Source: Henricia sp. BOLD:AAB3569
Lineage: Eukaryota; Echinodermata; Asteroidea; Spinulosida; Echinasteridae
Direction of reading: 5' to 3'
NCBI GenBank assembly: GCA_037783545.1
Contig: JBBELK010000387.1
Location: 1,922,001-1,986,000 of the forward strand
DNA length: 64,000 nucleotides
Position numbers and translations under genes: made by a program. Every line of letters begins with the position of its first letter. Positions within the stretch are counted from its first letter, which is position 1. The notes beneath the pieces were generated by a model, which worked only from the letters and a program-made list of their open reading frames with translations, did no database searches and was not told the origin of the DNA. Below are positions 30,501-59,178 of the stretch, piece after piece.

Positions 30501-33500
30501 ATCTCTGGGGTTGGAGTACTGGTTTAAAGGAAGCCCAAACCGCTCTGCCCTCAGTCGCAAAATCTCGTCATGCGAGAGTTCCGATTTTGACTTCAAATCA
30601 ATCTGGTCTCCAAACGATCCTTCGACCTGCGAGCTCCTCATATCCTTTGAAACATCTCCCATTTCCTGTGCCGAATCAAAACTGACATTCCTTACTTTAT
30701 CCAGCACTGCGGGTTGAGGTTCTTCTTTGGAATTGACAACACAGAATTTTGTTCCTTTGACGGCAGAAAATACTTCAGGATGTTCTTTCCGGCTCTCAAC
30801 TTTCGGAACTGCTTTCGATTTCAGACCAAACCTCACCGCCCTGGCTTTCAGTTTGTCGTTTTCTGTGATGGAGCTTTCTTGAGTCGCAGTTGAAGTCTTC
30901 GTTTCCCGACCACTCCAGTCATCCGACGGCTTCCAAGACCTTTTCTTCAACCAACTAGACAAGCAAGCCGGGACATCAGAATCTTTTTTACTCTCCCCAA
31001 CAGAGCAACTGCACAAGCCAGCCCCGTGCTCGATCTTCAAGTAAAGCTCTTCCTGGCATCCAGCGACTACATCTTTAGGAGCGATGTTCCACTGATGAAA
31101 AATGTTAGCAGAAGCCGCTTCTAATGCCATGTTCTCGGTCTGTCCACCCCCTATCCCTTCTAACGAACCAGCCGAACAACGTACGCTGATGTACAACTGT
31201 CCTGCTACTTTCATAGTCACCACAGTGTGACAAAGTGACAAGCTGTGTTTCTTGCAGATCCTCTTCAAAATGTCTGTCATACTCTGGTTTGCCTCAAAAT
31301 TGTCCTGGTCAGACGAATGGACTGAATCCGTGTTCTCGGACAGCTTTTGAGTTGGGATAGTCTTCGCTTCAACGAGGCTATGATCGGATATAAACAGACA
31401 AGCACTAGACAAGATGACATGAGTGTCGCCAAACATGGGATGAGAGAAAAATTGTATGTTACTCATTGTGATTCGAACCAGAGACCTTTGACACACCGGG
31501 CAGATGCTCTACCAGCTGAGCTATGAGGCACAGTGGTAAACTCCCTCAGGTTTCCCCCAAGACCTCTGACATACTGGGCAGATGCTTTACCAGCTGAGCT
31601 ATGAGACACAGTGGTATACTCCCTCAGGTTTTCCCCCAAGACCTCTGACGTATGTACTGGGCAGATGCTCTACCAGCTGAGCTATTAGACACAGTGGTAT
31701 ACTCCCTGAAATTTCCCCAAGACCTCTGACACACCGGGAAGATGCTCTACCAGCTGAGCTATGAGGCACAGTGGTATACTCTCTCAGGTTTTCCCCCCAA
31801 GACCTCCCACACACTGGGCATATGCTCTACCAGCTGAGCTATGAGGCACAGTGGTGTACTCCCTAAAGTTTCCCCAAGACCTCTGACACACTGGTCAGAT
31901 GCTCTACCAGCTGAGCTATGAGGCACAGTGGTATACTCCCTCAGGTTTTTCCCCCCAAGACCTCTGACACACCGGGCAAATGCTCTACCAGCTGAGCTAT
32001 GAGGCACAGTGGTATACTCCCTGAAGTTTCCCCAAGACCTCTGACACACCGGGCAGATGCTCTACCAGCTGAGCTATGAGACACAGTGGTATACTCCCTC
32101 AAGACCTCTGACACACACAGGGCAGATGCTCTACCAGCTGAGCTATGAGACACAGTGGTATACTCCCAAAGATTTTCTCCCAAGAACCCAAGCTTTTTCT
32201 CGATAGCATGGATGTGCAGCTGAGCAAAGTAACAAACGCAAGAGTTGGTATGGTACCTAATCACCAATGAAATGAAATCACTAAGCACCGTACTAAATAT
32301 TGCGTTCATGAACATGTCACATGAAAGTTTGAAAAATGAATTGACCTGCAAATTATAATTTTTATTTTTTGGTAAGCTGATGGAAGAAAAAAAATGTATG
32401 AAAGGAAATGTCACAAAGCCACCTTTAAAGAATTGTTTTTGCAATTTCCCGTTTTTTTTTTTTATAAACTGTACGGTTTGGTGAGAACAGAGTGGATGAA
32501 AAACCCAGCCTGGCCCAGGCCATTCGGCCTGATATTTTGCCACTACATGTACATGCCCTAAAACTAGTACAATCTTTGTGGGTATTGATCATGACCAAAA
32601 GGTGACTGCGCCATAAATACCAGGGCCTTACAAGTGCTTTAAACCCATTAGCAACTATAGTGCATTGTAATACATTGAAATTATTCCCCAAACAACCAAT
32701 TTCACAAATGAAAAGCATTTTGGGTAGTATAATAGAGTAGGATAATAGAGTACAAAAGTGTGTTGCTAAGGTTACTGGGTCTACACTAAAACCAGTGAAC
32801 TGTTTCCCTGCGCTTTAGCAATGGACATTTCAGATTACCAGTGAATGTTTAGACCCAGTAACCCTGGCGACTGGTGTCACACTTTAGCAACTCTATAAAC
32901 AGGGCGGTGTGGGGCATCACAGTTACTACAAAAATTAAGTATGCCTCGACAATTTCTTTTTTTGAGACCCTTAACTTGAAATGGTTAAACTTAATAAACA
33001 CCCAATATATATATCCTAAACTGATATTTGTATATTGAATACGATTTTTTATTGAGGACACGACAGTTAATTTCTTAAAAACGCAGTCTTTATGTTGCCC
33101 ATTCAGTACACTATAAAGAAATTTTGCAACATGCGTAATCAATATTCATGACTCATGAATAATTCATAATAATCCCGCCAGAGCACGCTATGAAGTTTTT
33201 CAGTGTCTCGGGAAGGTACCGAGTATACAGTGCTAATATACATTGGTTAAAGGCGCAGGCTCGTCAGCAATGCGCGCGCGCCAAATCCGTGCCACAAAAT
33301 ACGCAGCTCCATAGCAAAGGCATGGAGCTGCGTATTTCGTGGCACGAATATGGCGCGTGCGCATTGCTGACGAGCCTGTGCCGTTAAGGGCAAAATAAAT
33401 CCTAATTAACGTTCATTCATTCTCCCCGACACAAGCTAAATCAATTACTGAATAATTTATAAGCTATCCATGACAATTTTCACGACCTACCTCCTGTCCC

Positions 33501-36500
33501 CTGTCTCGTCACCAGTGACTCCAGTTTGTTGTTCATCTCCGACTGTTGCCGTTCGTTTTGTCGTTTTCGGCAAGTTTTTCACAGTGAAAGTCATTTTGGG
33601 ATAGATGATGTCATTATTGTAGATACTGTGGGTACGAAAAACGACAAAATAATCAAATTTCGGCCATTCAACACCGGCTAGCTCGGTGGTCGAGTGGTTA
33701 AGACGTCTGCCTTGTATGCAGGAGGTCGTGGGTTCCAGTCCCACCAGAGCACGCTATGAAGTTTTTCATAGTGTCTCAGGAAAGCACCGAGTATACAGTG
33801 TTAATAATTACGTCGGGTAAGGGCAAAACAAACCTTAATTAACTTTTATCAAAACAAGAAACCAAAATGTCATACCTTTCTTTTGTGATGAGGCTCAGTT
33901 TAGCCATCTGATCAATAACGCTTGGTTCCAATGGTGAGCCTAACTCCTTCATGTGCATGTCACGTAGAGCAGACGCCCAAATCCCGTTGGCTTTCTCTTG
34001 TAGTATCTACAGAATCAACAAAGGGTAAACAATTCTGCTCACTTAGGGGCCGTGTCCAAGTTGTCGACGTTTTCACGATTCTACAAAATAGAGGAAGGGG
34101 AAGGGGAAGGGGGGTCGAGGGCTGCAAAGGCCTTCAGAAGCACTGTAAAATGTTGACGCTTCATGGTAGTGGGGTAGGGAGGGGGATCTTGAAAAATACT
34201 ACGCTCTGTAGAACTGTGAAAATGTTGACAACTTTGGATGGCCGCTGAAATATTTAACAAATATTAAAGACACAGGCTCTTCATGCCTTTGCTATGAAGC
34301 TGCGTATTTCATGGCACGAAATTGGCGTGCACGCATTGCTGACGAGCCTGTGCCTCTAAGTCATATCTTCATTCGATGAAGAGACGACTTAATTCAAAGA
34401 AGCAAATTTGTAATGTGAACGCCGTTTTTGTTCAATGAATAATTTGGCAGGCCTTTTCACGTGTGTGCATCAAGTGTCAAGCGTCTGGCAAGCGTTGTTT
34501 TTTGACGCACTGCTCATGTGCAAATGGCGCAATTAAAAACCACACAGAACATCGAGAGCGTCAGACACTTGACTCGGGCACACAAACTGAGAAAATAGAA
34601 CTATGGCATACCTTTTGCACCCAATCTGTGGTGGCGCTGTTCAGTTGTGGAGATGGCGGTCCAGAGTCGACTTCAGGTTTGCGAGTGTTGAAACCGACTG
34701 ACGACTGGTCAGTTTTGGGTGCAATATTATTGTTTTCATTAACACCTGGTAATTAAGAGAAAATTATAAATAAGTGAGGAAAACATTAATAAATTTGTGT
34801 ATAAACCTCCCCCACCTCCCCCAAAAAACTTATAAAATTTAAAAAAAAAAAAATTTGTTTAAGTGAAAATGTTTTTGTACAAATTTTGGGTTTATAATAA
34901 ATTTTAGCCCCTGTAAATTTACCTTGACTATCAGTATCTGGGGCCGACATAAGTTTTTTGAAGCGCGGAGGAACCTCAAAGTTAGCCGACCACTCCTGCT
35001 TTATGTTGGCGGCACCTTTCGTTTTGCCTTTCTGTTGATGCGAAAACTGTTCCAATTGAAAGGCGTCATTGTTGACAGTTATGTACAAATGTTCGTCGGG
35101 TTTGGTCGACGCACTGCTCAGTTCTGTTGTTAGGCTTACACTGCGTTCATATTGCTTTTCGTCCCGCATTGAGCCAACGGATTGGCTCCGTTTTGAACCG
35201 AGTTTTCCAGACCACGGACCCGGATTAGGCGTGGACGTCGACGAGGATTTGGGCGCACTCATTTGAGGTGCTGATGATTTTGCCGAACGTGCAGTTGGTG
35301 CTGGGAGTTCTTTTGAGCTTATAGATGGCGTGGTTGATTTAACTGACGTCGTAGACTGCGCAGACGTTTTACTTGACTCTCTGGTTTGTACTGAAAACTT
35401 GCCTTGCTTTGACGTTGATTTTAGTGGCGATTTTGGTGGCGATTTTAGTGGCCACTTGGGATATTTCTTTACGGATGGCGAACTCGTGACTGGCTTTGCG
35501 TATGTCGTATGAAGAGGCTTGTAGAAGCTTCTCTGGGGTCGACTCTGTGGCTGGACTGCCCTCCTGAAATTGGGTCTACCATAACGAGATAGCTTGGTCC
35601 TTGCACCCCCCTGTTGGATTTCAAGCAAACAAAGATGTTAATTTGTAGTTGGAAAACGAACAAGAAACTTTTCTTTTTACGTAAAATATTGATCCAGTAA
35701 AGCTCTAATATATTACTTAGCATTAAAGATGTTGTTGTAAATTTATGGAATGTTTTATAGTGTTTAAAGAATTTTCCCGAAAATGGATTTTGTTTAAAGG
35801 AGTGTGACCAGATCACTTTTTTTTTACCCATAACTCCCCGGGACTTACCTTATGGGTCATGAGATTTTTATATCATAACATCCGTTATATTTTTCTGATT
35901 ACGAAACTGAAACTCCCGCGCTTCTAGGCCGCATATTTCCGAGGATATCGTCGAAAATCCACCGAATATTTGTAAACTAATTTTCTAGTATCAACGTTTT
36001 ACGCTGAAAGCCGACTCGATAGTTTTGTTCAATTTTGTACTGGAAATTTCGAATGTTTTCGGGTTTTTGGGACATGGGAGGTGTGTATGGGAGTTACTTG
36101 ATAATATTGGTAAGTTACATCGAAAACTATTTTCCAGAAACTCTGGTCACGCTCCTTTAAACCTAACAACCTGCTTTTTCGCGCTTAGGTCGACCGTTAT
36201 GGGTAAAAAAGGCGTATTAGGACGACCGACCGCATTAGGGCGACCGATAGCCGGTCGTCCTAACGCCAAGTGCTTCAAAAACCATCTTTATTAGGTCAAA
36301 AACCATTTTTATTAGGTTCTTAACCATTTTTATTAGGTCACAAACCATTTTCGTCTAGGTCGCAAAACATTTTTTTCAAAGAATTAGGTCGAGAAAATGG
36401 GTGTCAATTCATGAGTTTCTTTCCGAAAATTTTGTGGTTTTAGTGGTCTCTGTAAGCACTCTACCCAAAACGGTCGTCCTAATACGGGAAAAATAGTTAT

Positions 36501-41647: not shown

Positions 41648-44600
41648 TTAGTCTAAGAAAGCTCTCCTAGTACCACATTCACAACAAAACTTAGCATAAG
41701 AGACTGGGTACTGTGTTCCGCACTCGTGGCAGAACTTAGACCCTCGCCGACCGTCGATGTTTTCCAGACTAGGCTTCCGGTTGAAACTGGAACTCGAGGA
41801 GTGCTTTGAAGGTGGGTTTGGGGTTCTGGAATTAGGCGAGCTGTGGATTACACAAAATGATTCCGATTTGAGATAGATTACGGGATTGGAAAACTGTTAC
41901 AAACGGCGTTATCTCCATGTGTGATTGAGGATGTGTATAATAAAAACCAACCCGTGTATAAGTCAGCTCAGTACCTCATCTATGTTACATGTAGATAGAT
42001 TACAGGATTGGAAAACTGTTACAAACGGCATTATCTCCATGTGTGATTGGGGATGTGTATGATAAAAACCAACCTGTGTATAAGTCAGCTCAGTACCTCA
42101 TCTATGTTAGATAGATTACAGGATTGGAAAACTGTTACAAACGGCGTTATCTCCATGTGTGATTGAGGATGTGTATGATAAAAACCAACCTGTGTATAAG
42201 TCAGCTCAGTACCTCATCTACATTAGACAGATTACAGGATTGGAAAACTGTTACAAACGGCGTTATCTCCATGTGTGATTGAGGATGTGTATGATAAAAA
42301 CCAACCTGTGTATAAGTCAGCTCAGTACCTCATCTACATTCTGAGAAAACCACAAAAAACTGTGTACATGTTTTCAAGAAATTGCGCAAAGCCACCGTCC
42401 TATTTAAGCTGCATCCATGTAGCTGAAATTTCTGCAGACTAGTTTACCAACATTCTTCTTTAGATATATGTTATTCCCCTTATTCTAGGAATCTGTAAAA
42501 AGTTTCATCTTGCAAATAATGCTCTGGGTTTTTATTATTTTTAAGTTCAATTGGGAAATGTCCGACTGTATTTTTTTTGCTCGATCGTCACAACGTTGTA
42601 CAAACCTTTGTTCTTTTGCGGCTCGTACACGCTGATGGGGCAACATGTGATTAGACCCCGCCCTCCTCCTACCATAGCGATCCATGGAGTCTCCGTAGCC
42701 ATTGTTATCATACTCGTCTTCATCATCAATGTATCTACTGTGTGTTAGTACATGTGGATGGCATGTGGATGGCATGATGTGGTTAGTTGATGGTTATGTG
42801 TATTAGTACATGTGAACATGCATGTGGATATCATGTGACATACATGTGGATATCATGTGACATACATGTGATCGATATCATGTGACATACATGTGGATAT
42901 CATGTGACATACATGTGGATATCATGTGAATGGCATGTGATTAGTTGATGTTTATTAGTACATGAGACATGCATGTGGTTAGTATGTTAGCAGTAAAGGA
43001 GTCGACAGTTTAGTGGATTAAGACATGTGGACAACATGTGAATGGTATGTGGTTTAGTGGATATGGACATGTGACAAACACGTGGACATGAGGATGGCAT
43101 GTGATTGTCATGTGATTAATTTGTAGGTGATAGGGAGTTGGTAAAGAGTTATAAGCACATGGTTTTGGTGTTAATGGTAGACGTAATATGGATGATACGC
43201 AAAATTACACACAAATACGGTGAAATGAACAAAATGCATGCAATGTTAAAATGGTTAGAACGAGGGAAAGAATCAGAAAAGAAAGAAAAACAATTCTTAC
43301 AAATAGAAGCAGTACTTACGATAAAAAGGGTGGATACATTTATTAAAAAGCAGAAAGATAAGAGCATCTACTCTAGCATGCAGGTCGTGGGTTCGAGTCC
43401 CACTCAAGCATGCTAAGAAAATTGTTCTTGTCACTTGATACAAGCCATTTAGAAAAGGACCTTTTAGGGTCGGAAAATTTCAGTACAAACTAAAAAGTTT
43501 TCAACATATAAACCTCACATAAAAACACTCAGCTGGCAATGCTAACAATTTACATCGAGAAAAGCATAGACCGTAATCGAATAGCTGCCATCTTGTAGAG
43601 CAGTTTCTTTGTTCCGTGAAGACATGCATGGTTACACATTTTGTGCTTACATTGTTGACCAATTTAAATGACAAAAGTTGCCCTACAAGATGGCGGCTAT
43701 TCGATACGGTCTATTATCAATTGAAACTTATTGAAATGGTACAGTGCCATTTAAAAACTATAAATCTTTGAGTGTTTTACGTTGTAGATTACATTAGGTT
43801 TTGGAACATTCAAAATTGTTTTAAAATCGTACCTTTTCCCGCGTACACTGTCCCCGCTAGAACTGCGATAATTTGACGGCTTTTCCAACCGACGCTCGAG
43901 ACTGGCACTGCGCGCTTTGGATCCATTCACCATCCCGGGATCACCCGCTGAAACGGCAAACAAAGGAGCGTGGCCAGATCACATTTTTTAACTCCACTTT
44001 TTCCAATGGGTGTCGAGATTTCGATACCGTACCATTTGTCATATTTTTCTCGATACCATTCTAAAATTTTGCGCTCTCAATCCGTATATTTTCAAGGATT
44101 TCATTAAAAAACTACCAATGTTTTGTAAACTAATTTATCCGGTTCCATAAAGCAGTACAGTGATTACACCAACCTTTTTGCTTCCACATCCAAATTGGAG
44201 ATTGCAAATTTCCTGTTTTCTTCCCGTGGATAGTATTTTAGGGAGGTATTTTATATGATTGTTGGGTTAGAACGAAATCCATTTTCTGGAAAAATCTGAA
44301 CGAGCTCCTTTGAAAAAAAATTATAACCTGGTTACTGTAAGAAACGTAAATTCTGAACCTTACAATTTATCATATTATTTGTTACCTTGTTTGGTCCTTG
44401 CCCGGCCCGGTGGTGTCCGATCATTAATACTCATGTTACCGTACTGACTCTCAATTTGTGTTGATGAGCCCGAACCAGCCCTGCCTGTCCGCAATGCCGG
44501 ACCAGCCCTTGGTTGAACAATTTGTCGCTTCTTGGTTCCTGGTAAAGGTGGCTTGTACTGCAGCAAGCACAAAGATATCAAATATAATACAATTTTCCTA

Positions 44601-47316
44601 TAGCCCCAATACATCATTTATTTATTTTATTTATTTATTTAATCAAATCTAACAGCGAATAAATCGCCATTTACAGGAAAGGTACAAATAAAGTATGACA
44701 TAAAACATAAATATGAAGGGAAAAAAACAAAAATTAAATTAGGCTATGTACATTAAAAATTTAATTTGAAATTGCAGTTACCCAAAATTTTACTTTACGA
44801 GTTGACAAGAAAAACCTGACTAAAAGTGTTGATAACAATGGTAACAAACACCACATGATTTTTCGTTTCCGTGTAAAATGGTACCTTTGTGGGAGAAATT
44901 GCCAACTGAGGGCGTTTTCCTAAAAAAAAATTGTCTGCAGATAAGGGCTCTCAGAAAACCAATTTGTTGGGTTTTCAACCTGATTGAACCTGCGTGGGAT
45001 GAGCTGACTTCTGGAGCAGTGCATCTCCCAAACAGCCCTAGAAGTGCAGGAGCTCAGAGGAGACACTTCAAGCAGAACGGCGCACCCTGCCTCAGAGGCT
45101 CTTATGAAGGCTGGTACAGTCAGCCTTGCCACAAGGTGGTCATACATATTACTGACTGATCAAATATTTTGAGTGGCGCACCCTGCCTCAGTGGCTCTTA
45201 CGGAGGCTGGTGCAGTTAGCCTTGCTACAAACAGTTTTTTTTAAAGGCAGTATACATGATTGGTATCTCGAAAATCAGAAATGTTCACAGATTTACGCCT
45301 AACTTACACAATATAAACATGATAACCGTGGAAAACTGGTTTTGTCTAAAGTGCTATAGTCTTTGAGAAATGAGTAAAACAATTAGTTTTCGTCTCATGA
45401 GGCGAAAATTTTATTCGCCCCAAAACCATTTCGCCCAAGTGCCATTTCGCCCCCAAACCACTTCGCCCGAGTGCCATTTCGCCCCAAATCACTTCGTCCA
45501 AACACTACATCGCCCAAATGCTACTTCGCCCCAAAACCACTTCGTGCACAGGTCGTGGTTCAGGGCGAAATAGTTCAGGACGAAGTGGTTTTGGGGCGAA
45601 ATGACTGCAAACCTTTTTTGACTGTTTTCCCAAAAGTTAGACGAAATACGGAGCTGGTTTTTGCTCAGGTTGGTTTTAATCATGCATATCTTCAATCACA
45701 CAGGGGGATAAAACTATTTGTAACAGTTTACCAATCATGTATTGTATACTATCTTTAAGGTACTATTTACCTGTGTCCTGATGTCCATTTTCCCTTTGTC
45801 CACGGCAGCTTTGTTGCTTGAAGTGGCAATTCTCTTGCCTTTTTCCTTACACCACGGAATGTGTCGCTCGGCTGCACTCTCATTAAAATTACGCTGACAA
45901 TACGGGCACTGCTCGTAATCTGTCGCAAAAAATAACACACTGGACGGATAAGAAACAAGGCTTTTGTAATTAAATGCAGAATGGTTATGTGTAGTAGTAC
46001 ATGTGAACATGCATGTGGATATCATGTGACATGCATGTGGATATCATGAGACATACATGTGGATATCATGTGACATACATGTGGATATCATGTGGATATC
46101 ATGTGACATACATGTGATTAGTTGATGTTTATTAGTACATGAGACATGCATGTGGTTAGTATGTTAGCAGTAAGGGAGTCAACAGTTTAGTGGATTAAGA
46201 CATGTGGACAACATGTGAATGGTATGTGGTTTAGTGAATGGACATGTGACAAACACGTGGACGGCATGTGATTGTCATGTGATTAATTTGTAGGTGATAG
46301 GGAGTTGGTAAAGAGTTATAAGCACATGGTTTTGGTGTTAATGGTAGACGTAATATGGATGATATGCAAAATTACACACAAATAACAAGAACAAGCTGTA
46401 AAAACATATTTACAGTTCTAAAAAGGTTACTTGTGCAAACATTTAGAATACATTTATGAGATGGAAAAATGACATAACATCGTCATTGTAACAGATTTTT
46501 AAAAGCCACCGTTGTAAACAAAGCGAAGAAAATTAATGAGCCCCAATGATTTTTGAAGTGTTCTAATACCTGGGTTGACTCTGGTCTGCGAAGGCGGTGG
46601 AGGCAAGGGCGCCCCCGTTTTCATCGCATACGTAACTCCCCTCGCATTTCGCAGCGATGACACTAAATCTTCGTGCTTAGCACGCCAGTTAGCAGTCTGT
46701 TTTTTCTGTTGGCAAAACATACGTGTTAATTGACACACTTTTAATTAATTAATACTTTCTTGCTGACAATATTTTAAAATTTATTGCAGGCCAACCATAC
46801 ACTATATTTTCAAAGCGAACGTTGGCACCAAAAATTAGAATATCTTGCAAACCTGCAACCAATTTCACAAAACCTTACGCACTGCGTAAGCTCTCTTGCG
46901 CAACTTTTTATTGCATAAGTTGCGCAACATTTCTGCAATAATTACACGCAAGCTATTTTTTGTGAAATCAGCCGCTTTTTCATGAAATCAGGTAAGAAGA
47001 CATACTATTTGTTACCAGTGATACAGGGTTAATCAAACAGGTTCATATGGATAGACCTCTATGTCCGAGTATTTCAATTCTTTGGCTCAATTTTTTCAAT
47101 TAATTTGTTCAATTCTCACCACTTTTTCCAGCTTTTTGGGGTCTGCTTTGGGGATATTTTTGAGGCTAATCCCCTCAGTCCGTTGTTTGGAGGAGTCAAA
47201 GACCTTCCTCTTTTTAGCTGCATTTTTCTCGCAGATTTTGATGTGCTTTGGAAGCGTCGTCTCAACAAAATTTCGGCCACAGATGTCGCATGGGTAAAGG
47301 TCTGGTGGTGTAGAAG
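41648..47316 (-). CDS. ZC2HC1A: ZC2HC1A-like C2HC zinc-finger protein, first exon not found
   Basis: Seven exons in consistent phase on the minus strand: 47316-47120, 46696-46570, 45919-45771, 44557-44386, 43947-43833, 42737-42606 and 41840-41648 (stop). They give 360 residues without the N-terminus; human ZC2HC1A has about 325. Two zinc knuckles with spacing C-x2-C-x11-H-x3-C begin at [10 protein letters not shown] (exon 47316) and [10 protein letters not shown] (exon 45919). Between them lie [17 protein letters not shown] and a PLPPPP stretch, as in the human protein. The middle is Ser/Arg-rich and basic. The C-terminus has [10 protein letters not shown] and FCCECGTRR, a CxxC pair matching the family. 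The role of the family is poorly known; zinc binding is inferred from spacing. The first exon must end with one base of a split codon and lies upstream of 47316. Confidence 0.87.
41870..42415 (+). mobile_element. Element with internal tandem of about 115-120 bp, copy 2
   Basis: Four units start near GATTACAGGATTGGAAAACT, followed by the same unique tail as 11955-12045 (AACTGTGTACATGTTTTCAAG to TCCTATTTAAGCTG). It is antisense to the zinc-finger gene, in its last intron. Confidence 0.6.
42770..43215. repeat. ACATGTGGATATCATGTG repeat tract, copy 1 of a duplicated intron segment
   Basis: Short ATGTGGATATCATGTGACAT repeats are followed by unique text (GATAGGGAGTTGGTAAAGAG to GCAAAATTACACACAAATA). 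The whole stretch of about 400 bp recurs at 45985-46390 in the same orientation. Confidence 0.75.
43568..43712. mobile_element. 145-bp MITE with YY1-like TIRs
   Basis: ATAGACCGTAATCGAATAGC and GCCATCTTGTAG on the left face CTACAAGATGGCGGC and TATTCGATACGGTCTAT on the right. The CAAGATGGCGGC core matches the vertebrate YY1 consensus. Confidence 0.65.
43965..44313. mobile_element. MITE family V, complete copy
   Basis: This runs from AAAGGAGCGTGGCCAGATCA to TCTGAACGAGCTCCTTT with inverted ends of about 18 bp. It lies in an intron of the zinc-finger gene about 18 bp from one exon (43947) and about 70 bp from another (44386). Confidence 0.7.
44640..45235. repeat. Dispersed repeats in a ZC2HC1A intron
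   Basis: About 44770-44890 matches the TTGATAACAATGGTAACAA repeat of 24770 and 26465. About 44922-45235 is an inverted copy of 14375-14560, with its terminal GCGCACCCTGCCTCAG unit present twice. Confidence 0.5.
45244..45762. mobile_element. MITE with hairpin-rich CGCCCC core, copy 2
   Basis: The left end AAAGGCAGTATACATGATTGG faces CCAATCATGTATTG and ACTATCTTT on the right. TTTAA borders both sides. The core repeats TTTCGCCCCAAAACCA-type phrases and their complements, as in 16968-17150. It ends about 8 bp from exon 45771-45919. Confidence 0.7.
45985..46390. repeat. ACATGTGGATATCATGTG repeat tract, copy 2 of the duplicated segment
   Basis: This matches 42795-43215 in the same orientation, differing in the number of short repeats and by a few substitutions. 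Three zinc-finger-gene exons lie between the copies. Confidence 0.75.
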
Positions 47317-49663: not shown

Positions 49664-49985
49664 GCGCCAAGTGGTGGATGTTAAATCTCAAACGCTGCAG
49701 TAATGTTTGCAAAATTCAAGAAATATCCGAAGAAAAAAATAATTGGGCCGCACGAGGGCGCTGCAAAAGACACAATTTAGACTTGACCAAGTCTTTCAAA
49801 AGCAGATTTGTGTATGTGAGGCTGTGATTACAACGACCTCCGCGTCTTATAGTGCCAGGGCATTATGAATGATTCCATGAGCCTTCTTGGTTGTGGCAGT
49901 CCAATAAATAAATTTCAATTGTGTCTTAGTGGGTCTCTGTCTTTGTTGCGTTGGGCCAATAAAGTACCCTGGTCTGCCTGAATTC

Positions 49986-52870
49986 AACCTCAAACGCTGC
50001 AGTAATATTTCTGTATAAAGTACACTGGTCAGCGCGAAAACCACCTCAAACGCTGCAGTAATATTTCTGTATAAAGTACACCGGTCGGCGCGAAATCCAC
50101 CTCAAACGCTGCAGTAATATTTATGTATAAAGTACACCGGTCGGCGCGAAATCCACCTCAAACGCTGCAGTAATATTTCTGTATAAAGTACAATGGTCGG
50201 CGTAAAATCCACCTCAAACGCTGCAGTAATTTTTCTGTATAAAGTATATTGGTCTGCCTAAAAACCACCTCAAACGCTGCAGTAATATTTCTGCGTGAAG
50301 CATATTGGTCTGCCTGAAAACCACCTCAAACGCTGCAGTAATATTTCTGTATAAAGTACACTGGTCAGCGCGAAAACCACCTCAAACGCTGCAGTAATAT
50401 TTCTGTATAAAGTACACTGGTCAGCGCGAAAACCACCTCAAACGCTGCATAATATTTCTGTATAAAGTACACTGGTCAGCGCGAAAACCACCTCAAACGC
50501 TGCAGTAATTTTTCTGTATCAAGTACACTGGTCAGCGCGAAATCCACCTCAAACGCTGCAGTAATATTTCTGCATAAAGCCTGTTGGTCTGCCTGAAAAC
50601 CACCTCAAACGCTGCAGTAATTTTTCTGTATAAAGTACACTGGTCAGCGCGAAATCCACCTCAAACGCTGCAGTAATATTTATGTATAAAGTACACTGGT
50701 CAGCGCGAAAACCACCTCAAACGCTGCATAATATTTCTGTATAAAGTACACTGGTCAGCGCGAAAACCACCTCAAACGCTGCAGTAATTTTTCTGTATCA
50801 AGTACACTGGTCAGCGCGAAATCCACCTCAAACGCTGCAGTAATATTTCTGCATAAAGCCTGTTGGTCTGCCTGAAAACCACCTCAAACGCTGCAGTAAT
50901 ATTTCTGTATAAAGTACACTGGTCAGCGCGAAATCCACCTCAAACGCTGCAGTAATTTTTTTAAAATAAAGTATTATTGGTCTGCCTGAAAACCACCTCA
51001 AACGCTGCAGTAATATTTCTGTATAAAGTACACTGGTCAGCGCGAAAACCACCTCAAACGCTGCAGTAATTTTTCTGTATAAAGTACACTGGTCAGCGCG
51101 AAATCCACCTCAAACGCTGCAGTAATTTTTTTAAAATAAAGTATATTGGTCTGCCTGAATTCAACCTCAAACGCTGCAGTAATATTTCTGTATAAAGTAC
51201 ACTGGTCAGCGCGAAAACCACCTCAAACGCTGCAGTAATATTTCTGTATAAAGTACACCGGTCGGCGCGAAATCCACCTCAAACGCTGCAGTAATATTTA
51301 TGTATAAAGTACACCGGTCGGCGCGAAATCCACCTCAAACGCTACAGTAATATTTCTGTATAAAGTACAATGGTCGGCGTGAAATCCACCTCAAACGCTG
51401 CAGTAATTTTTCTGTATAAAGTATATTGGTCTGCCTAAGAACCACCTCAAACGCTGCAGTAATATTTCTGCGTGAAGCATATTGGTCTGCCTGAAAACCA
51501 CCTCAAACGCTGCAGTAATATTTCTGTATAAAGTACACTGGTCAGCGCGAAAACCACCTCAAACGCTGCAGTAATTTTTCTGTATCAAGTACACTGGTCA
51601 GCGCGAAATCCACCTCAAACGCTGCAGTAATATTTCTGCATAAAGCCTGTTGGTCTGCCTGAAAACCACCTCAAACGCTGCAGTAATTTTTCTGTATAAA
51701 GTACACTGGTCAGCGCGAAAACCACCTCAAACGCTGCATAATATTTCTGTATAAAGTAGACTGGTCAGCGCGAAAACCACCTCAAACGCTGCAGTAATTT
51801 TTCTGTATCAAGTACACTGGTCAGCGCGAAATCCACCTCAAACGCTGCAGTAATATTTCTGCATAAAGCCTGTTGGTCTGCCTGAAAACCACCTCAAACG
51901 CTGCAGTAATTTTTCTGTATAAAGTACACTGGTCAGCGCGAAATCCACCTCAAACGCTGCAGTAATTTTTTTTAAATAAAGTATTATTGGTCTGCCTGAA
52001 AACCACCTCAAACGCTGCAGTAATATTTCTGTATAAAGTACACTGGTCAGCGCGAAATGCACCTCAAACGCTGCAGTAATATTTGTGCGTAAAGCCTATT
52101 GGTCTCCCTGAAAACCACCTCAAACGCTGCAGTAATATTTTTTTTATAAAGTATATTGGTCTGCCTGAAAACCACCTCAAACGCTGCAGTAATTTTTCTG
52201 TATAAAGTACACTGGTCAGCGCGAAATGCACCTCAAACGCTGCAGTAATATTTCTGTATAAAGTACACTGGTCTGCCTGAAAACCACCTCAAACGCTGCA
52301 GTAATATTTCTGTATGAAGTACACTGGTCAGCGCGAAATCCACCTCAAACGCTGCAGTAATTTTTTTTAAATAAAGTATATTGGTCTGCCTGAAAACCAC
52401 CTCAAACGCTGCAGTAATATTTCTGTATAAAGTACACTGGTCAGCGCGAAAACCACCTTAAACGCTGCAGTAATTTTTCTGTATAAAGTACACTGGTCAG
52501 CGCGAAATCCAACTCAAACGCTGCAGTAAGATTTCTTTATAAAGTGCAATGGTCAGCCTGAAATCCACCTCAAACGCTGCAGTAATGTTTTTTTTATAAA
52601 GTATATTGGTCTGCCTGAAAACCACCTCAAACGCTGCAGTAATATTTGTGCGTAAAGCCTATTGGTCTCCCTGAAAACCACCTCAAACGCTGCAGTAATA
52701 TTTCTGTATAAAGTACACTGGTCAGCGCGAAATCCAACTCAAACGCTGCAGTAAGATTTCTTTATAAAGTGCAATGGTCAGCCTGAAATCCACCTCAAAC
52801 GCTGCAGTAAGATTTCTGTATAAAGTATATTGGTCTGCTTGAAATCCACCTCAAACACTGCAGTAAGATT
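49986..52870 (+). repeat. Left-arm array, about 51 units of 56 bp
   Basis: The unit starts with CACCTCAAACGCTGCAGTAA and has two main variants after GTACACTGGTC or GTATATTGGTC: AGCGCGAAA and TGCCTGAAA. The variants are mixed. Longer blocks are themselves duplicated (for example about 50030-50420 resembles 51190-51560), showing growth by unequal exchange or slippage of multi-unit segments. Apparent open frames are by-products. Confidence 0.92.
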
Positions 52871-53540
52871 CCAGCTTAAAGGACATAATGACTTGGCGAG
52901 AAAAACGCGGCAGTGTAAGGTTTGTGTGGATAGTATACTGTCCATCGCGTATGAATACTGTATAGTTCAGGGAGAGATGCGTCCCCGGCGTTTAAACTGT
53001 CGCTCTCATCGCGTCGTGGAAATTTGCATAGTTTTTGTATTCTGCTGAAATTGGAGAAGATTAAAATCAATATGTTTTGCAAATTCATTCACTGTAATTC
53101 GTTCTATATAACTTGTATTTCAAGAACAATTAGGGAGACACTTGAAATGTAAATGAATGTGACTTTCGGAAAACTGTTATTGTCAGTGTAAAACATTCTT
53201 TCATGTTTAGACTCCTTGCAACGTCGTTACTTATATCCTTTGTTTGAGGTATACTTACTATTGGAGCGGTCCTTACCAACCTATAAGAGGTCAGTGTTAG
53301 GTTCAACTCTGCTACCCGCTTACTTCTTTAGTATAGTCACCATGGAGAATTTGGCTGGAAATAAAGAAATTTAGTGAAATAACCAATTGTGACTATAGCG
53401 GTTTGTCGTTTTCATTCCGGCCTAAACATAATACAAAGATTTAAAAGGCAGAAAGGCGCTTTCTTGTTAACACATTTCTTTGAAAATTAATTTTCTGTTA
53501 ACTCAGCAGCATCAATACTCTTTCTAGAGCTAAGACGGCG
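52871..53540. other. Unassigned sequence inside the foldback element
   Basis: This is non-repetitive AT-rich sequence between the left array and the LINE remnant. Short open frames here show no recognisable domain. Confidence 0.4.
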
Positions 53541-55660
53541 GTACAGTTAAAACTCAATTAATTGAATGTGGTTGTTTTTAACGTTAAGTATTTTAATAGG
53601 GAAGCCATCATTAGATTAATCAACACACTTAATGGGGGTTCCGCCCCTGGTCCTGATGGTATAACAGCAGAGCATATAAAACATTGTGTTAATTCTGGTC
53701 TTCCAGACATTTTAGCTAACATTTGTAATATCTGTATTAAATTTGGTTTTGTGCCCGGGAAGTTTCAAATGGGCACACTAAGTCACTTGTGCCTATTCTG
53801 ATACCTGAAAGTTATCGTCCTGTTATAGTTTATAATACACTGTCTAAATTGTTTGATTTATGTTTGCTTGAATCTTCTAATGTTAAGTTTTATAATTTAC
53901 AGTATGGGTTTTTTAATGGTAGGGGCACAGCCATGGCTGCTGCCTCTGTTCACGATGTCATCAAATATTGCAATAACCGTGGATCTTCTGTTTTTGCATA
54001 CTCATTAGATGCTGAGGGTGCCTTCGACGCCATCCCACATGACATCATTTTTTATAAATTAATTGATAATATTAGAGATGGTTGGTGGAGATGTCTTTAT
54101 TTTTGGTATTATAATATTTCCGTTAAGGTTAAATGGGCTAACAGTCTGGGTAAACGAGTTAATATTTGTAAGGGCACGAGGCAAGGAGGACATTCCTCTC
54201 CTTTGATTTTTAACTTGTTTTATAAAGATTTGGTGAATGGCCTAAATAATCTCAATTGTGGTATTGTTACAGCTCGTTATAATTTAAATTTTTTTTTGTT
54301 ATGCAGATGATTTACTACTTCTTAGCATGACCCCATCTGGCCTTCAGTTGTTGATTGATTATGCAAATGATTATATTGTGGAACATGGTTTACGTTTTAA
54401 TCCCTCTAAGACATTTTGCTGCACTTTTGGGAAGAATCATTTTGTTAATGAACCTGCTTGGTTTTTAAATGATTCGATCATATCACTAACCTAGGGGTCA
54501 CTTTGTCTTCTGAGAGTCACATGGAAGAAAGAATGAGGAAATGTCAAATGGCATTCTTCTCCCTACAGGGGGCGGGCTTTGTAAGGGTGGTTCCAGTTCG
54601 GATGTCAAAGTTTGTGGAATTCCGTTTTAATCCCCATATTGACTTATGGATGTCAGAGTGTTAATTTAAAGGGCCCATGAAATGCTCAATAACTTTATGC
54701 ACAGTTTTTGCTGCATATGAAGGATTACTTGTGTAGAAAGACAATACTACTGTTCATTTTGATGCCCCATGAGTAAAAAGTGTCATTTTTCAACTTTGAA
54801 AATATCTTTACATAAACTCACAGACAGAGGGCGCTGTTTGGGGCATGTCACTTTAGGAACACACTGCAAAAAAGCAAAGAAAAAACATAAGACTTCAAAC
54901 TAGAATTGTGAAAAAAAATGCTGCAGTTTCCAGCCTTAGTTTTTTCATGGTTTGAAACAGGCAACATGTAAAACAAACCTAAACCATCATGGGTTACAAA
55001 CGTTTCAGCAAGTTGGAGAAAATTGTGGAAACTTTTGTGCACAGTTGAATGAGATTTTCCTGTGTTTTCCATCACTTTGCTCATGCATATGTAAATTTTC
55101 ATTAGCATAAAAATCGAAAACCTTGATTTTAACCCCCCAAACAACTTTCAAGTTGGGTTTTTATGATTGTAAATTAATGGACTAGTTCCATAGCACATAT
55201 TTGTCATAGTACACCCTTATTGCATGCTATTGGAGTGCCTAAAGTGAGTAGCATTATTAAGGGTTTACAGTTGGGTCTTATGTCTCAAGTTTTAAATTTA
55301 ATAATGATTCTGCATCCAGAGCATTTTATTCTCAATTGTTAAATTGTCATAACACATGCGATAAGTCGACTACTATATGTAATGGTACTTTGGTGTCACG
55401 TGTTGAGAATTGCAAAAATAAGTTTTCTCTGGTAAATTCAATTTTTGATGCAAAGTAAAATTCTTTTAAGGATATTTTATGTGTTAATCATGGTATATGT
55501 GATAGCATCAAGTTTCTTTTGTTCAAGAATGACTTTGATGGTATTAAACAATTATTATCTCCATTTTAATTTTAGTATCTTGATGTCGTGGGGTATTTTA
55601 CTTCTCCCTCGGGAGGTTGTGTGGAAATAAATAAAAATAAAGAAATAAAATACAACTGAT
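53540..55660 (+). mobile_element. Decayed LINE (non-LTR reverse transcriptase) carried in the foldback centre
   Basis: Reverse transcriptase motifs are readable in order: SAPGPDGITAEHIK (about 53645), SLDAEGAFDAIPHD with the first catalytic Asp (about 54005), GTRQGGHSSPLIFN (about 54175), YADDLLLLS (about 54303) and ILTYGCQS (about 54635). The frame changes near 53790 and 54300, so it is not intact. The 5' part with an endonuclease is absent. A T1 MITE interrupts it at about 54666-55180. The 3' end is an A-rich AAATAAATAAAAATAAAG tail near 55625-55655, typical of LINEs. The clade is not assigned. Confidence 0.8.
54666..55180. mobile_element. MITE T1, copy 3, inserted in the LINE
   Basis: The left end TTTAAAGGGCCCATGAAATG and the body (ACAGACAGAGGGCGCTGTTT, TTTCATTAGCATAAAAA-type phrases) match 25420-25973. 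The right end is diverged or shortened before LINE sequence resumes near AATGGACTAGTTCC. Confidence 0.6.
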
Positions 55661-55699
55661 CGTGTAAATTTACATCTTCCCGTTTAATAAGGAACGTGT

Positions 55700-56650
55700 T
55701 AAGATTTTTCCAGAAAATTGATTATGTTTTAACCTAGGTTAGCAATCATATAAAATATCTCTCCAACATACTTTTTTTATACAGGCAAACAGGAAATTTT
55801 CAATTTCCAATTTGGATGTGGAAGCAAAAAGGTCGGAGTAATCACGGTATTGCTTTATGTAACCATTGCTGACCATATCCCTGGAAATATACGAATTGGG
55901 GCCGCGAAAAACTATGACACATCATATGGAATCAAAATCTCAACACCCATGGGAAAAAATTGGAGGCTCAAAATGTGATCTCATCATCTGCTCACGCTCC
56001 TTTAAAGGACGTGTGAAATAGGGTTTTTATTACATAAAATATTAGTAGAGGATGTGTTTTACACATTTCGGTCAATTTCAGAGAATTTGATAGTTGCGTT
56101 TTGGTGTAATTGCACGTTTTCTATTTTTATGTTAATGAGAATTTCCATATTCATGAGCAAAGCTGTGATGTCATCTCAGGAAAAACAGAGAAATTCTCCA
56201 TAGACTTGTGTACAAAAGTTAATGTCATTTTCAGTGGCTTCTTGATATCATGAACTATATAAGTTTACTGAGTTTGTTTAGTATGTCATTTGCAACAATC
56301 CTAACAAGTTTGTTTGGGTCAAAAATGGATCAGTAGGGCTACTGCTACTGTTTGAAATGTAATGTTCTTTCTTTGTTTTTCCACTGTGGGTTCCCTCCAT
56401 GACCAGCAACAAACAGCGCCCTCGCCGGACAAGACATTTTTGAAGTAAAGAAAATGTCACTTCTTTCTGAAATGAAAACAAATTTGAGTTTTCCCCTTTG
56501 TCTGCAACACTTTGATCTTTTGATTTCTGTATAAAAACAGCTGGGTGATAATTTCCCCCTCACAAAACCTTTAAACGAAAACAGTAAACACACAGATAAT
56601 AACAGTTACTGGTTTTGAAGTTACTGTACAGTTTAATTACGTTAAAATAC
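55700..56650. repeat. MITE V copy and a T1-like relic in the foldback centre
   Basis: About 55700-56005 is a family V copy ending CTCACGCTCCTTTAAAG. About 56010-56420 contains T1-like phrases (TTAATGAGAATTTCCATATT, AACAGCGCCCTC). 56650-56924 shows nothing recognisable. Confidence 0.5.
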
Positions 56651-56924
56651 CTTTTTACGTAAATAACGGCGTGGAGCAGTTAAGTCACGGGAGAAAATAC
56701 AGCTTTTATTTCCCTCTTTATAAGCAACGAACCATAATTGCCCACCAACGGAGACGACATAAACAAACAACCATTGTTTACGCAAACGACGTAGTCATCA
56801 TAACATTTATGGACAGCTGTTCATGGCCATTCAGCTTCAATTAACTGTTTACTGTAGTTGATATGTGCATTCATGCTTAAAGACCATGCAGCGTTACATA
56901 ATGCATTCATAATGTGAATACACA

Positions 56925-58345
56925 GAAATCTTACTGCAGCGTTTGAGGCGGTTTTTAGGCTGACCATGTACCAATGCACTTAATAAAGAAATATTACTGC
57001 AGCGTTTGAGGTTGATTTCGCGCTGACCAGTGTACTTTATACAGAAATATTACTGCAGCGTTTGAGGTGGTTTTCGCGCTGACCAATATACTTTATAAAA
57101 AAACATTACTGCAGCGTTTGAGGTGGATTTCAGGGAGACCAATAGGCTTTACGCAGAAAAATTACTGCAGCGTTTGAGGTGGATTTCGCGCTGACCAGTG
57201 TACTTTATACAGAAATATTACTGCAGCGTTTGAGGTGGATTTCAGGGAGACTAATAGGCTTCACGCAGAAATATTACTGCAGCGTTTGGGGTGGTTTTCA
57301 GGCAGACCAGTGTACTTTTTACAGAAATATTACTGCAGCGTTTGAGGTGGTTTTCAGGCAGACCAGTGTACTTTATACAGAAATATTACTGCAGCGTTTG
57401 AGGTGGTTTTCAGGGAGACCAATAGGCTTTACGCACAAATATTACTGCAGCGTTTGAGGTTTTCATGCAGACCAATATACTTTATAAAAAAACATTACTG
57501 CAGCGTTTGAGGTGGATTTCAGGGAGACCAATAGGCTTTACGCAGAAAAATTACTGCAGCGTTTGAGGTGGATTTCGCGCTGACCAGTGTACTTTATACA
57601 GAAATATTACTGCAGCGTTTGAGGTGGATTTCAGGGAGACTAATAGGCTTCACGCAGAAATATTACTGCAGCGTTTGAGGTGGTTTTCAGGCAGACCAGT
57701 GTACTTTTTACAGAAATATTAGGCCTACTGCAGCGTTTGAGGTGGTTTTCAGGCAGACCAATATACTTTATAAAAAAAAAAAATTACTGCAGCGTTTGAG
57801 GTGGATTTCAGGGAGACCAATAGGCTTTACGCAGAAATATTACTGCAGCGTTTAAGGTGGTTTTCAGGCAGACCAGTGTACTTTTTACAGAAATATTACT
57901 GCAGCGTTTGAGGTGGTTTTCAGGCAGACCAGTGTACTTTATACAGAAATATTACTGCAGCGTTTGAGGTGGTTTTCAGGGAGACCAATAGGCTTTACGC
58001 ACAAATATTACTGCAGCGTTTGAGGTGGTTTTCAGGCAGACCAATATACTTTATAAAAAAAACATTACTGCAGCGTTTGAGGTGGATTTCAGGGAGACCA
58101 ATAGGCTTTACGCAGAAAAATTACTGCAGCGTTTGAGGTGGATTTCGCGCTGACCAGTGTACTTTATACAGAAATATTACTGCAGCGTTTGAGGTGGATT
58201 TCAGGGAGACCAATAGGCTTCACGCAGAAATATTACTGCAGCGTTTGAGGTGGTTTTCAGGGAGACCAATAGGCTTCACGCAGAAATATTACTGCAGCGT
58301 TTGAGGTGGATTTCGCGCTGAACGGTGTACTTGCTACAAAAATAG
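56925..58345 (-). repeat. Right-arm array, about 25 units of 53-57 bp
   Basis: This is the same unit family as the left arm, in reverse (TTACTGCAGCGTTTGAGGTG). Variants include GATTTCAGGGAGACCAATAG and GTTTTCAGGCAGACCAGTGT. A block of several units (about 57090-57440) is repeated at about 57500-57720 and 58040-58250. Confidence 0.92.
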
Positions 58346-58364
58346 TAATACAGCCTTTGACTCC

Positions 58365-58550
58365 TATCTCCCTTCCCCCTCCCCTCCCTTCGACCGCCCC
58401 AACCCTGTCCCGGCCCATCCATGCCCCAACCCCACCCCTGCCCTGGCCAACCCCACCACAGCCCCAACCCCACCCCAGCCCCAACCCCACCCCAGCCCCA
58501 ACCTCACCCCAACCCCAGCACCAACCCCACCCCACACCCCCCAAGCCAAG
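58365..58550. repeat. C-rich CCAACCCCACCCCAGCC tract
   Basis: A strongly strand-asymmetric polypyrimidine-like tract at the inner edge of the right arm. The proline-rich and glycine/tryptophan-rich open frames across it are low-complexity by-products. Confidence 0.75.
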
Positions 58551-59178
58551 TAAATGCAAGTCGTATCATGGAGCTATATGGTCGTATACAGCCAAAACAA
58601 ACACAAAACCCAAATTATTTTCCATTGATGCAAGCCGAATCGCTAATTATTTGTCTCGCTGAAGGCTAATGGCAGGCGTACTATTGTACCATTTTATGCC
58701 AAAGGACTAGGTGAAGTCTAATTTAGAAGCAAAATGTGTGCCGCCCTCATTCCACTTTTTCTTCGGATATTTCTTGAATTTTAAAAACATTACTGCAGCG
58801 TTTGAGATTTAACATCCACCGCGCCAAGTCGGGAAAAAGAAGATGGTCAACGTTCGACAGCGGAGAAAAATTCACTCAATTTGCTGTTTATGAGCGACGG
58901 AAGTTTCTCTGTGAATGCTCAATTATTTAAGGTATGTTTTTCGTCAATTTATCGATATAATTCGTGACCGAGATGCTCTTTACGCCGTTTTATTTTTGCC
59001 GTATGTAATGTCAAATTTTCTTGACACATTCCTCCGAAATAAGTAAATAGCGCCCTCTATGAACAGAACGCCGAAGGTACATTGTCCTGGGGGCGGGGCC
59101 GGGAGGGGGAAGTGCACACGGAAACGGTTTTATTTCCAACCTGTGCACGTATGCAAATCACATTGATCAATCGGTATT

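What the first reader, a model, noticed from the sequence alone, without database searches (positions are those of the whole stretch)
49664..58829. Giant foldback element with array-built inverted arms and perfect 9-bp target duplication
GCGCCAAGT occurs immediately outside both inverted ends. The arms are mainly arrays of a 56-bp unit, about 51 copies on the left and 25 on the right, in opposite orientation, around a 4-kb passenger region holding a LINE remnant and MITEs. FB (Drosophila) and TU (sea urchin) elements share array-built arms and 8-9 bp duplications, but this unit sequence and size are not ones I know. Unequal arms and duplicated multi-unit blocks show continued array growth.
Basis: partly seen in the sequence, partly recalled or inferred. 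Interest (0 to 1): 0.78.

Follow-up and report, generated by a model that had tools for sequence, protein, structure and literature searches.

The report
Foldback transposon with giant repeat-built arms
This is a real mobile DNA element, one of several dozen copies in its genome, whose ends are long opposed arrays of a 56-base repeat and which duplicates 9 bases where it inserts; no mobilising enzyme of its own was found in the copies read.

Summary
Confirmed. Window 49673-58820 (9148 bp) is a transposon between perfect 9-bp duplications. Its joined flanks match an uninterrupted site on C882 (96% over 440 bp). Its 32-nt end occurs 106 times, reversed control 0. Of 37 hand-paired elements, 23 have perfect 9-bp duplications, 1 a perfect 10-bp, 6 have 1-2 mismatches, 7 none; control 0 of 1332. 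The arms repeat, in a 56-bp unit, an 18-bp motif of the terminal repeat, probably a transposase-binding site (inferred). The passenger is mainly a family core, found in both orientations between the arms (12 and 22 of 34 typed); the best tree of 17 cores needs 3 flips, well-supported branches 2. None of 19 cores has a frame over 257 aa, and that one is reverse transcriptase. The 19 MULE, 5 Mutator and 20 Merlin-type places lie outside listed elements; large copies were read only in part. Verdict: a young, non-autonomous foldback transposon family, probably moved by a Mutator-superfamily transposase that was not found. New family, known kind; arm scale and core flipping are unusual.

The parts
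49664..49672 (.). left target-site duplication GCGCCAAGT
   Evidence: a single copy (GCGCCAGGT, 1 mismatch) in the empty site on C882
49673..49737 (+). left terminal inverted repeat, tip GGTGG, carrying the motif CTCAAACGCTGCAGTAAT
   Evidence: first 65 bp common to both ends, two differences between the window's own ends
49738..49988 (+). left subterminal region of the 'C' type, although its tip is GGTGG
   Evidence: 98% to the 125-nt C-end sequence
49989..52867 (+). left array of the 56-bp unit
   Evidence: TRF 51.9 copies; 53 motif matches counting the terminal one
52868..56930 (.). core shared by the family, here in the rarer orientation relative to the C end
53741..54307 (+). reverse transcriptase fragment of a LINE, nearly whole in 12 of 19 cores
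   Evidence: RVT_1 E 8e-17 on the homologous frame of L041
56007..56567 (.). 561-bp insertion between 8-bp duplications CCTTTAAA (55999-56006, 56568-56575), absent from L041
56931..58306 (-). right array of the 56-bp unit, inverted
   Evidence: TRF 23.9 copies; 26 motif matches counting the terminal one
58307..58755 (-). right subterminal region of the 'G' type, with a CCCCA-rich tract 58423-58540
   Evidence: 98% to the 132-nt G-end sequence
58756..58820 (-). right terminal inverted repeat, tip GGTGG
58821..58829 (.). right target-site duplication GCGCCAAGT

Best explanation
A non-autonomous cut-and-paste DNA transposon of the foldback type. A transposase made elsewhere recognises the terminal tip GGT(C/G)GATGTTAAATC with the adjacent motif CTCAAACGCTGCAGTAAT, cuts at the tips and inserts with a 9-bp staggered cut. 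The arms are that second motif amplified inside a 56-bp unit, so each arm would be a long array of secondary transposase-binding sites. Arrays expand and shrink by unequal exchange or slippage. The arms are long inverted homologous arrays, so they can recombine with each other, which inverts the core. Shown: insertion with a 9-bp duplication, recent amplification, array size variation, two core orientations. Inferred: the transposase class (Mutator superfamily, from the duplication length and the analogues; I put this part at about 0.65), the binding role of the motif, and arm-arm recombination as the cause of the flips. The confidence below is for the transposon, foldback and non-autonomous parts.
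For: 106 end matches, reversed control 0. 23 of 37 pairs with perfect 9-bp duplications, control 0 of 1332. Empty site. Recent spread: among the best candidates that the tool scored, 17 of 40 G-end rows are identical over 132 bp and 22 of 42 C-end rows over 125 bp; ten cores are 99.3-100% alike. Unit and terminal repeat share 18 bp; these positions average 98.8% consensus over 1089 units from 38 arms, against 85.1% in the other 38 positions. Core orientation 12 against 22 of 34 typed elements (hand-typed); one clade of all M copies rejected, p 1e-57. Units of the left and right arms of one element are 86.9% alike (18 elements), units within one arm 87.2% (37 arms).
Against: No transposase in 19 cores (largest stop-to-stop frame 257 aa, a reverse transcriptase fragment), and the PF10551, PF20700 and PF12762 places lie outside listed elements, so the superfamily rests on duplication length and analogy. 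Seven of 37 pairs have no duplication, nor do three older pairs noticed later (C62, C862, C1269). The motif window ranks only 5th of 56 sliding windows, because conservation continues upstream into AACCACC, and arms were delimited with the motif itself. Orientations are partly clustered on the tree (42 and 47 of 500 shuffles as low); starred branches force only 2 changes, and a tree that keeps L033 outside the ten young M copies is not rejected (p 0.71). Units of different elements are nearly as alike (85.9%) as units within an arm.
Confidence: 0.85

Rival explanations
1. Inverted satellite duplication: a 56-bp satellite block duplicated in inverted orientation by genome rearrangement, with no transposition.
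For: Array-built arms of unequal length; 7 of 37 pairs without target duplications.
Against: The same tips at many different sites with perfect 9-bp duplications, 23 of 37, and an empty site.
Confidence: 0.02
2. On the transposase only: a foldback element mobilised by a transposase outside the Mutator superfamily, convergent in form as Galileo is within the P superfamily.
For: No Mutator-type domain place lies inside a listed element. A different 11-kb transposon in this genome (C71:748878-759955) also makes a 9-bp duplication and encodes a protein with no Pfam match above cut-off (best E 0.0042, below it) and no NCBIfam or PDB match at E 1, so 9 bp alone is no proof of a MULE here. Galileo shows foldback-like arms outside Mutator (PMC3688188, abstract and discussion section).
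Against: 9 bp is the common MULE duplication (PMC6446971 table passage; PMC3169594 passages); Tm1 and Rehavkus pair tandem-repeat termini with that superfamily or its close kin.
Confidence: 0.3
3. The two core orientations are old lineages fixed by one inversion, not a recurrent product of the arms.
For: Orientations are partly clustered on the tree; starred branches force only 2 changes.
Against: The best tree needs 3 changes (3-4 in bootstraps, 0% of 200 bootstrap trees with 1); L033 (P) shares a starred clade with ten M copies, nine of them at 99.4-99.6% to it and L038 at 98.7%.
Confidence: 0.12

Closest known systems
Tm1 family of Meloidogyne (Mutator/Phantom foldback)
   Different: Unit of 13-15 bp there, 56 bp here; one Tm1 copy encodes a MULE-like transposase, none was found here
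Rehavkus-1_TC (Tribolium) and the Rehavkus group
   Same: About 9.5 kb with tandem units in inverted termini (PMC10218199, passages); 9-bp duplications for the group (PMC6446971, passages)
   Different: 164-bp unit in arrays of mostly 5 and 8; the group is listed with one ORF and a PHD finger, neither seen here
Tetris (Drosophila virilis)
   Same: Foldback with 8-10 bp duplications, tandem units in the arms that share 37 bp with the outer terminal domain, no transposase copy found (PMC4079207, passages)
   Different: About 220-bp unit, arms up to 1,735 bp; its units also form longer satellite-like arrays
Galileo (P superfamily)
   Same: Long internally repetitive terminal repeats whose tandem repeats hold further binding sites of the transposase THAP domain (PMC3688188, abstract and discussion section)
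   Different: Different superfamily; about 210-bp repeats, up to three copies (PMC3573991, passages)
FB (Drosophila) and TU (sea urchin)
   Same: Array-built arms and 8-9 bp duplications (recalled; no original paper seen)
   Different: Unit size and sequence differ (recalled); no sequence comparison could be made

Membership tests
Foldback-type DNA transposon (structural class) | long inverted arms built largely of tandem repeats around a variable middle | tested here: met
Foldback-type DNA transposon (structural class) | dispersed copies with target-site duplications | tested here: met
   of 37 pairs 23 perfect 9 bp, 1 perfect 10 bp, 6 with 1-2 mismatches, 7 none; control 0 of 1332; empty site
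Mutator superfamily (MULE) | target duplication of mostly 9 bp (table) | tested here: met
Mutator superfamily (MULE) | MULE transposase in the element or in a partner with the same ends | tested here: inconclusive
   none in 19 cores; 19 PF10551 and 5 PF20700 places, none inside a listed element; no tip or motif within 1.5 kb of the 19 PF10551 places; several large elements not read whole
Rehavkus | transposase with a PHD finger | not testable with these tools
   no autonomous copy found; I knew of no Rehavkus model in the libraries and ran no search for one
FB of Drosophila / TU of sea urchin | homologous terminal sequence and repeat unit | not tested
Merlin superfamily (8-9 bp duplications, recalled) | IS1595-type transposase within or paired with these ends | tested here: inconclusive
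   20 PF12762 places, none inside a listed element

The most novel reading that the evidence does not exclude
The arms are selected arrays of transposase-binding sites that reach many kilobases (148 array motifs over 8.4 kb in one arm) and work as an inversion switch: they recombine with each other often enough that the core between them flips repeatedly while the tips stay mobile.
Probability: 0.3. Interest if true: 0.55.

Novelty: new member of a known kind. Interest (0 to 1): 0.42.

Why it matters
It adds a young foldback family with many target duplications, an empty site and assembled arrays. It makes testable why foldback arms grow: whether the arrays repeat a transposase-binding motif (stated as untested for Foldback and Phantom elements in PMC3688188) and whether the arms drive inversion of the interior.

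Tried and rejected
Inverted satellite duplication: contradicted by the empty site and family duplications. LINE as private cargo of this copy: rejected, since 12 of 19 cores hold it nearly whole and 1 partly; the older copies C163/C1063 match only positions 1-984 and 3278-3838 of the L036 core and lack it. PF10551, PF20700 and PF12762 proteins as partner: none inside a listed element. The 931-aa open frame P0001 beside a C71 arm: rejected as partner, because it lies in a separate 11,078-bp transposon with its own inverted ends and 9-bp duplication ACCATTAGC, inserted in the G end of a C71 copy, and its copies at 99-100% on C480, C1037 and C638 are not at listed ends. Reverse transcriptase frames that I took for DIRS-like (recalled, no family search) in the C121 copies look like insertions; those two copies are 99.97% identical over 9,509 bp in inverted orientation, so one duplication. 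Exchange of duplications between elements that lack a match: 35 orphan ends compared, no reciprocal pair, only two pairs with identical flanks, so ectopic exchange is unproved.

Rows dropped or limited: L046 and L047 left out of the first duplication test because the exact pattern gave no two ends; L035 (no core match) and L045 (duplicate of L032) left out of the tree; C1051, C70:1531k, C121:2358k and C1136 untyped for orientation, and C1063 and the second C121 copy counted with their duplicates. Of the 34 typed, C306, C370, C1202 and C1293 rest on one end only, C1202 by its 302-bp spacing, and C163 by its first 110 bp although its end-to-array spacings are swapped relative to the others. One search listed 100 of 106 end matches, so six are unplaced there. 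Paper searches; none was by sequence, so I do not claim that this family is unpublished.

Full report
Observation. The window is C387:1922001-1986000 of an unnamed 740.7-Mb genome in 2104 contigs. The element is 49673-58820 (9148 bp) between GCGCCAAGT at 49664-49672 and 58821-58829. TRF finds period-56 arrays of 51.9 and 23.9 copies on opposite strands.

Transposition. The 32-nt end with up to 3 mismatches occurs 53 times on each strand; the reversed pattern occurs 0 times (100 of 106 listed). I paired plus and minus ends by hand at 4 to 22.5 kb. Of 37 pairs, 23 have perfect 9-bp duplications, 1 a perfect 10-bp one, 5 one mismatch, 1 two mismatches and 7 none; no left end matched the right end of another element in 1332 trials. 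C163 and C1063 have identical flanks and are one insertion, so 36 are independent. Three pairs noticed later (C62, C862, C1269) lack duplications in the printed flanks. The window's joined flanks, 440 bp with one 9-mer, match C882:825782-826220 end to end at 96%. A 600-bp alignment shows one copy of the 9-mer with one mismatch and no element. Whether that site is a paralogue or a diverged haplotype was not determined.

Anatomy. There are two end types, told apart by the sequence after about 65 shared terminal bp. C ends (tip mostly GGTCG) have their first array unit 296-314 bp in; G ends (tip mostly GGTGG) 402-562 bp in, after a GGGGT-rich stretch; C163/C1063 are exceptions with 527 and 297 (19 elements). 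The window copy has GGTGG at both tips but a C-type left and G-type right subterminal region. The terminal repeat holds CTCAAACGCTGCAGTAAT, also a best-kept part of the 56-bp unit: 98.8% consensus in those 18 positions against 85.1% in the other 38, over 1089 units from 38 arms. Conservation continues upstream into AACCACC, so the motif window ranks 5th of 56; arms were delimited with a motif match of up to 2 substitutions, which favours the motif somewhat.

Arrays. 3 to 83 units were aligned per arm. One arm of C1202 has 148 array motifs over 8,362 bp. Left and right sizes are uncorrelated (Spearman 0.13, p 0.61, 19 elements). The exact 17-nt motif occurs 4280 times genome-wide, reversed control 0; 1261 lie in the window and 20 loci. 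A diverged copy on C862 has 3 units at its G end, counted by eye in the printed sequence, followed by core-like sequence at 84% to L041. That small arrays are ancestral is inferred.

Core. Sixteen of 17 compared cores are 97-100% alike over aligned columns; L032 is at 89-93%. The standard core is about 3.84 kb. A reverse transcriptase fragment (RVT_1 E 8e-17 on L041) is nearly whole in 12 of 19 cores, partial in 1 and absent from 6. The longest stop-to-stop frame in 19 cores is 257 aa, that fragment.

Two orientations. With the C end on the left, the segment homologous to window 52880-53400 is forward (P) in 12 and reverse (M) in 22 of 34 typed elements (by hand, four on one end only). On the best tree of 17 cores the orientation changes at least 3 times (3-4 in bootstraps); starred branches force 2; one clade of all M copies is rejected (p 1e-57); a tree with L033 outside the ten young M copies is not rejected (p 0.71); 42 and 47 of 500 shuffles are as low. 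So flips happened at least twice, probably three times. Recombination between the inverted arms is the natural cause, but that is inferred. Units are 86.9% alike between the two arms of an element, 87.2% within an arm, 85.9% between elements.

Age. Among best candidates scored, 17 of 40 G-end rows and 22 of 42 C-end rows are identical to the query over 132 and 125 bp, and ten cores are 99.3-100% alike: recent activity.

Partner. Pfam MULE gave 19 places, Mutator 5, IS1595/Merlin 20; only one of their contigs (C69) also bears a listed end, about 0.4 Mb away. In 19 loci around the MULE domains no similar tip or motif was found.

Comparison. Anatomy and duplication length resemble Tm1, Rehavkus-1_TC and Tetris, all seen as passages. 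For Galileo, binding of the transposase THAP domain to sites in the tandem repeats was reported; the same discussion says that the role of tandem repeats in Foldback and Phantom elements is untested. FB and TU comparisons are recalled. It works like a foldback MULE; membership in Mutator is likely but unproved without a transposase.

Score. A well-supported new family of a known kind; the large arms and the core flips add interest. On recheck the robust number of flips fell from 3 to 2 (3 on the best tree); I raised the single-inversion rival from 0.10 to 0.12 and left the other odds.

Noticed in passing
L085 and L108 (C71:748878-759955): An 11,078-bp transposon with inverted ends TAGTCTTGGTGCAAGACGATACTGC and 9-bp duplication ACCATTAGC is nested in the G end of a foldback copy. 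It holds an open frame (931 aa read, P0001) with 61 matches in the genome (25-100% identity), Pfam matches only below cut-off, and no NCBIfam or PDB match at E 1.
   Followed up: partly
C139:1741015-1741194 (L107 holds its outer end): Three copies of the tip in tandem at 74-bp spacing.
   Followed up: no
L041 1-160 (C481): A second C end lacking the motif, facing the other way, ends about 105 bp outside the C481 element.
   Followed up: partly
L047 1224-1820 (C1269): A 198-aa frame with a MADF (Myb/SANT-like) domain, E 1.9e-5, lies inside a small diverged copy, perhaps a captured gene fragment.
   Followed up: partly
C121:1248549-1269480 and 1912955-1934206: Two 21-kb copies in inverted orientation on one contig, 99.97% identical over the 9,509 bp compared.
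   Followed up: partly
window 3920-4782, 15010-16080, 16276-16751, 31482-32167: Tandem arrays with 68- and 77-bp units that look tRNA-derived to me; ARAGORN calls a tRNA-Ala at 16689-16762 in one and a tRNA-Thr at 33680-33752 elsewhere.
   Followed up: no
window 11175-11606 and 41871-42340; 42809-42944 and 46000-46117: Two pairs of arrays sharing a 116-bp and an 11/22-bp unit, perhaps parts of other repeat-bearing elements.
   Followed up: no
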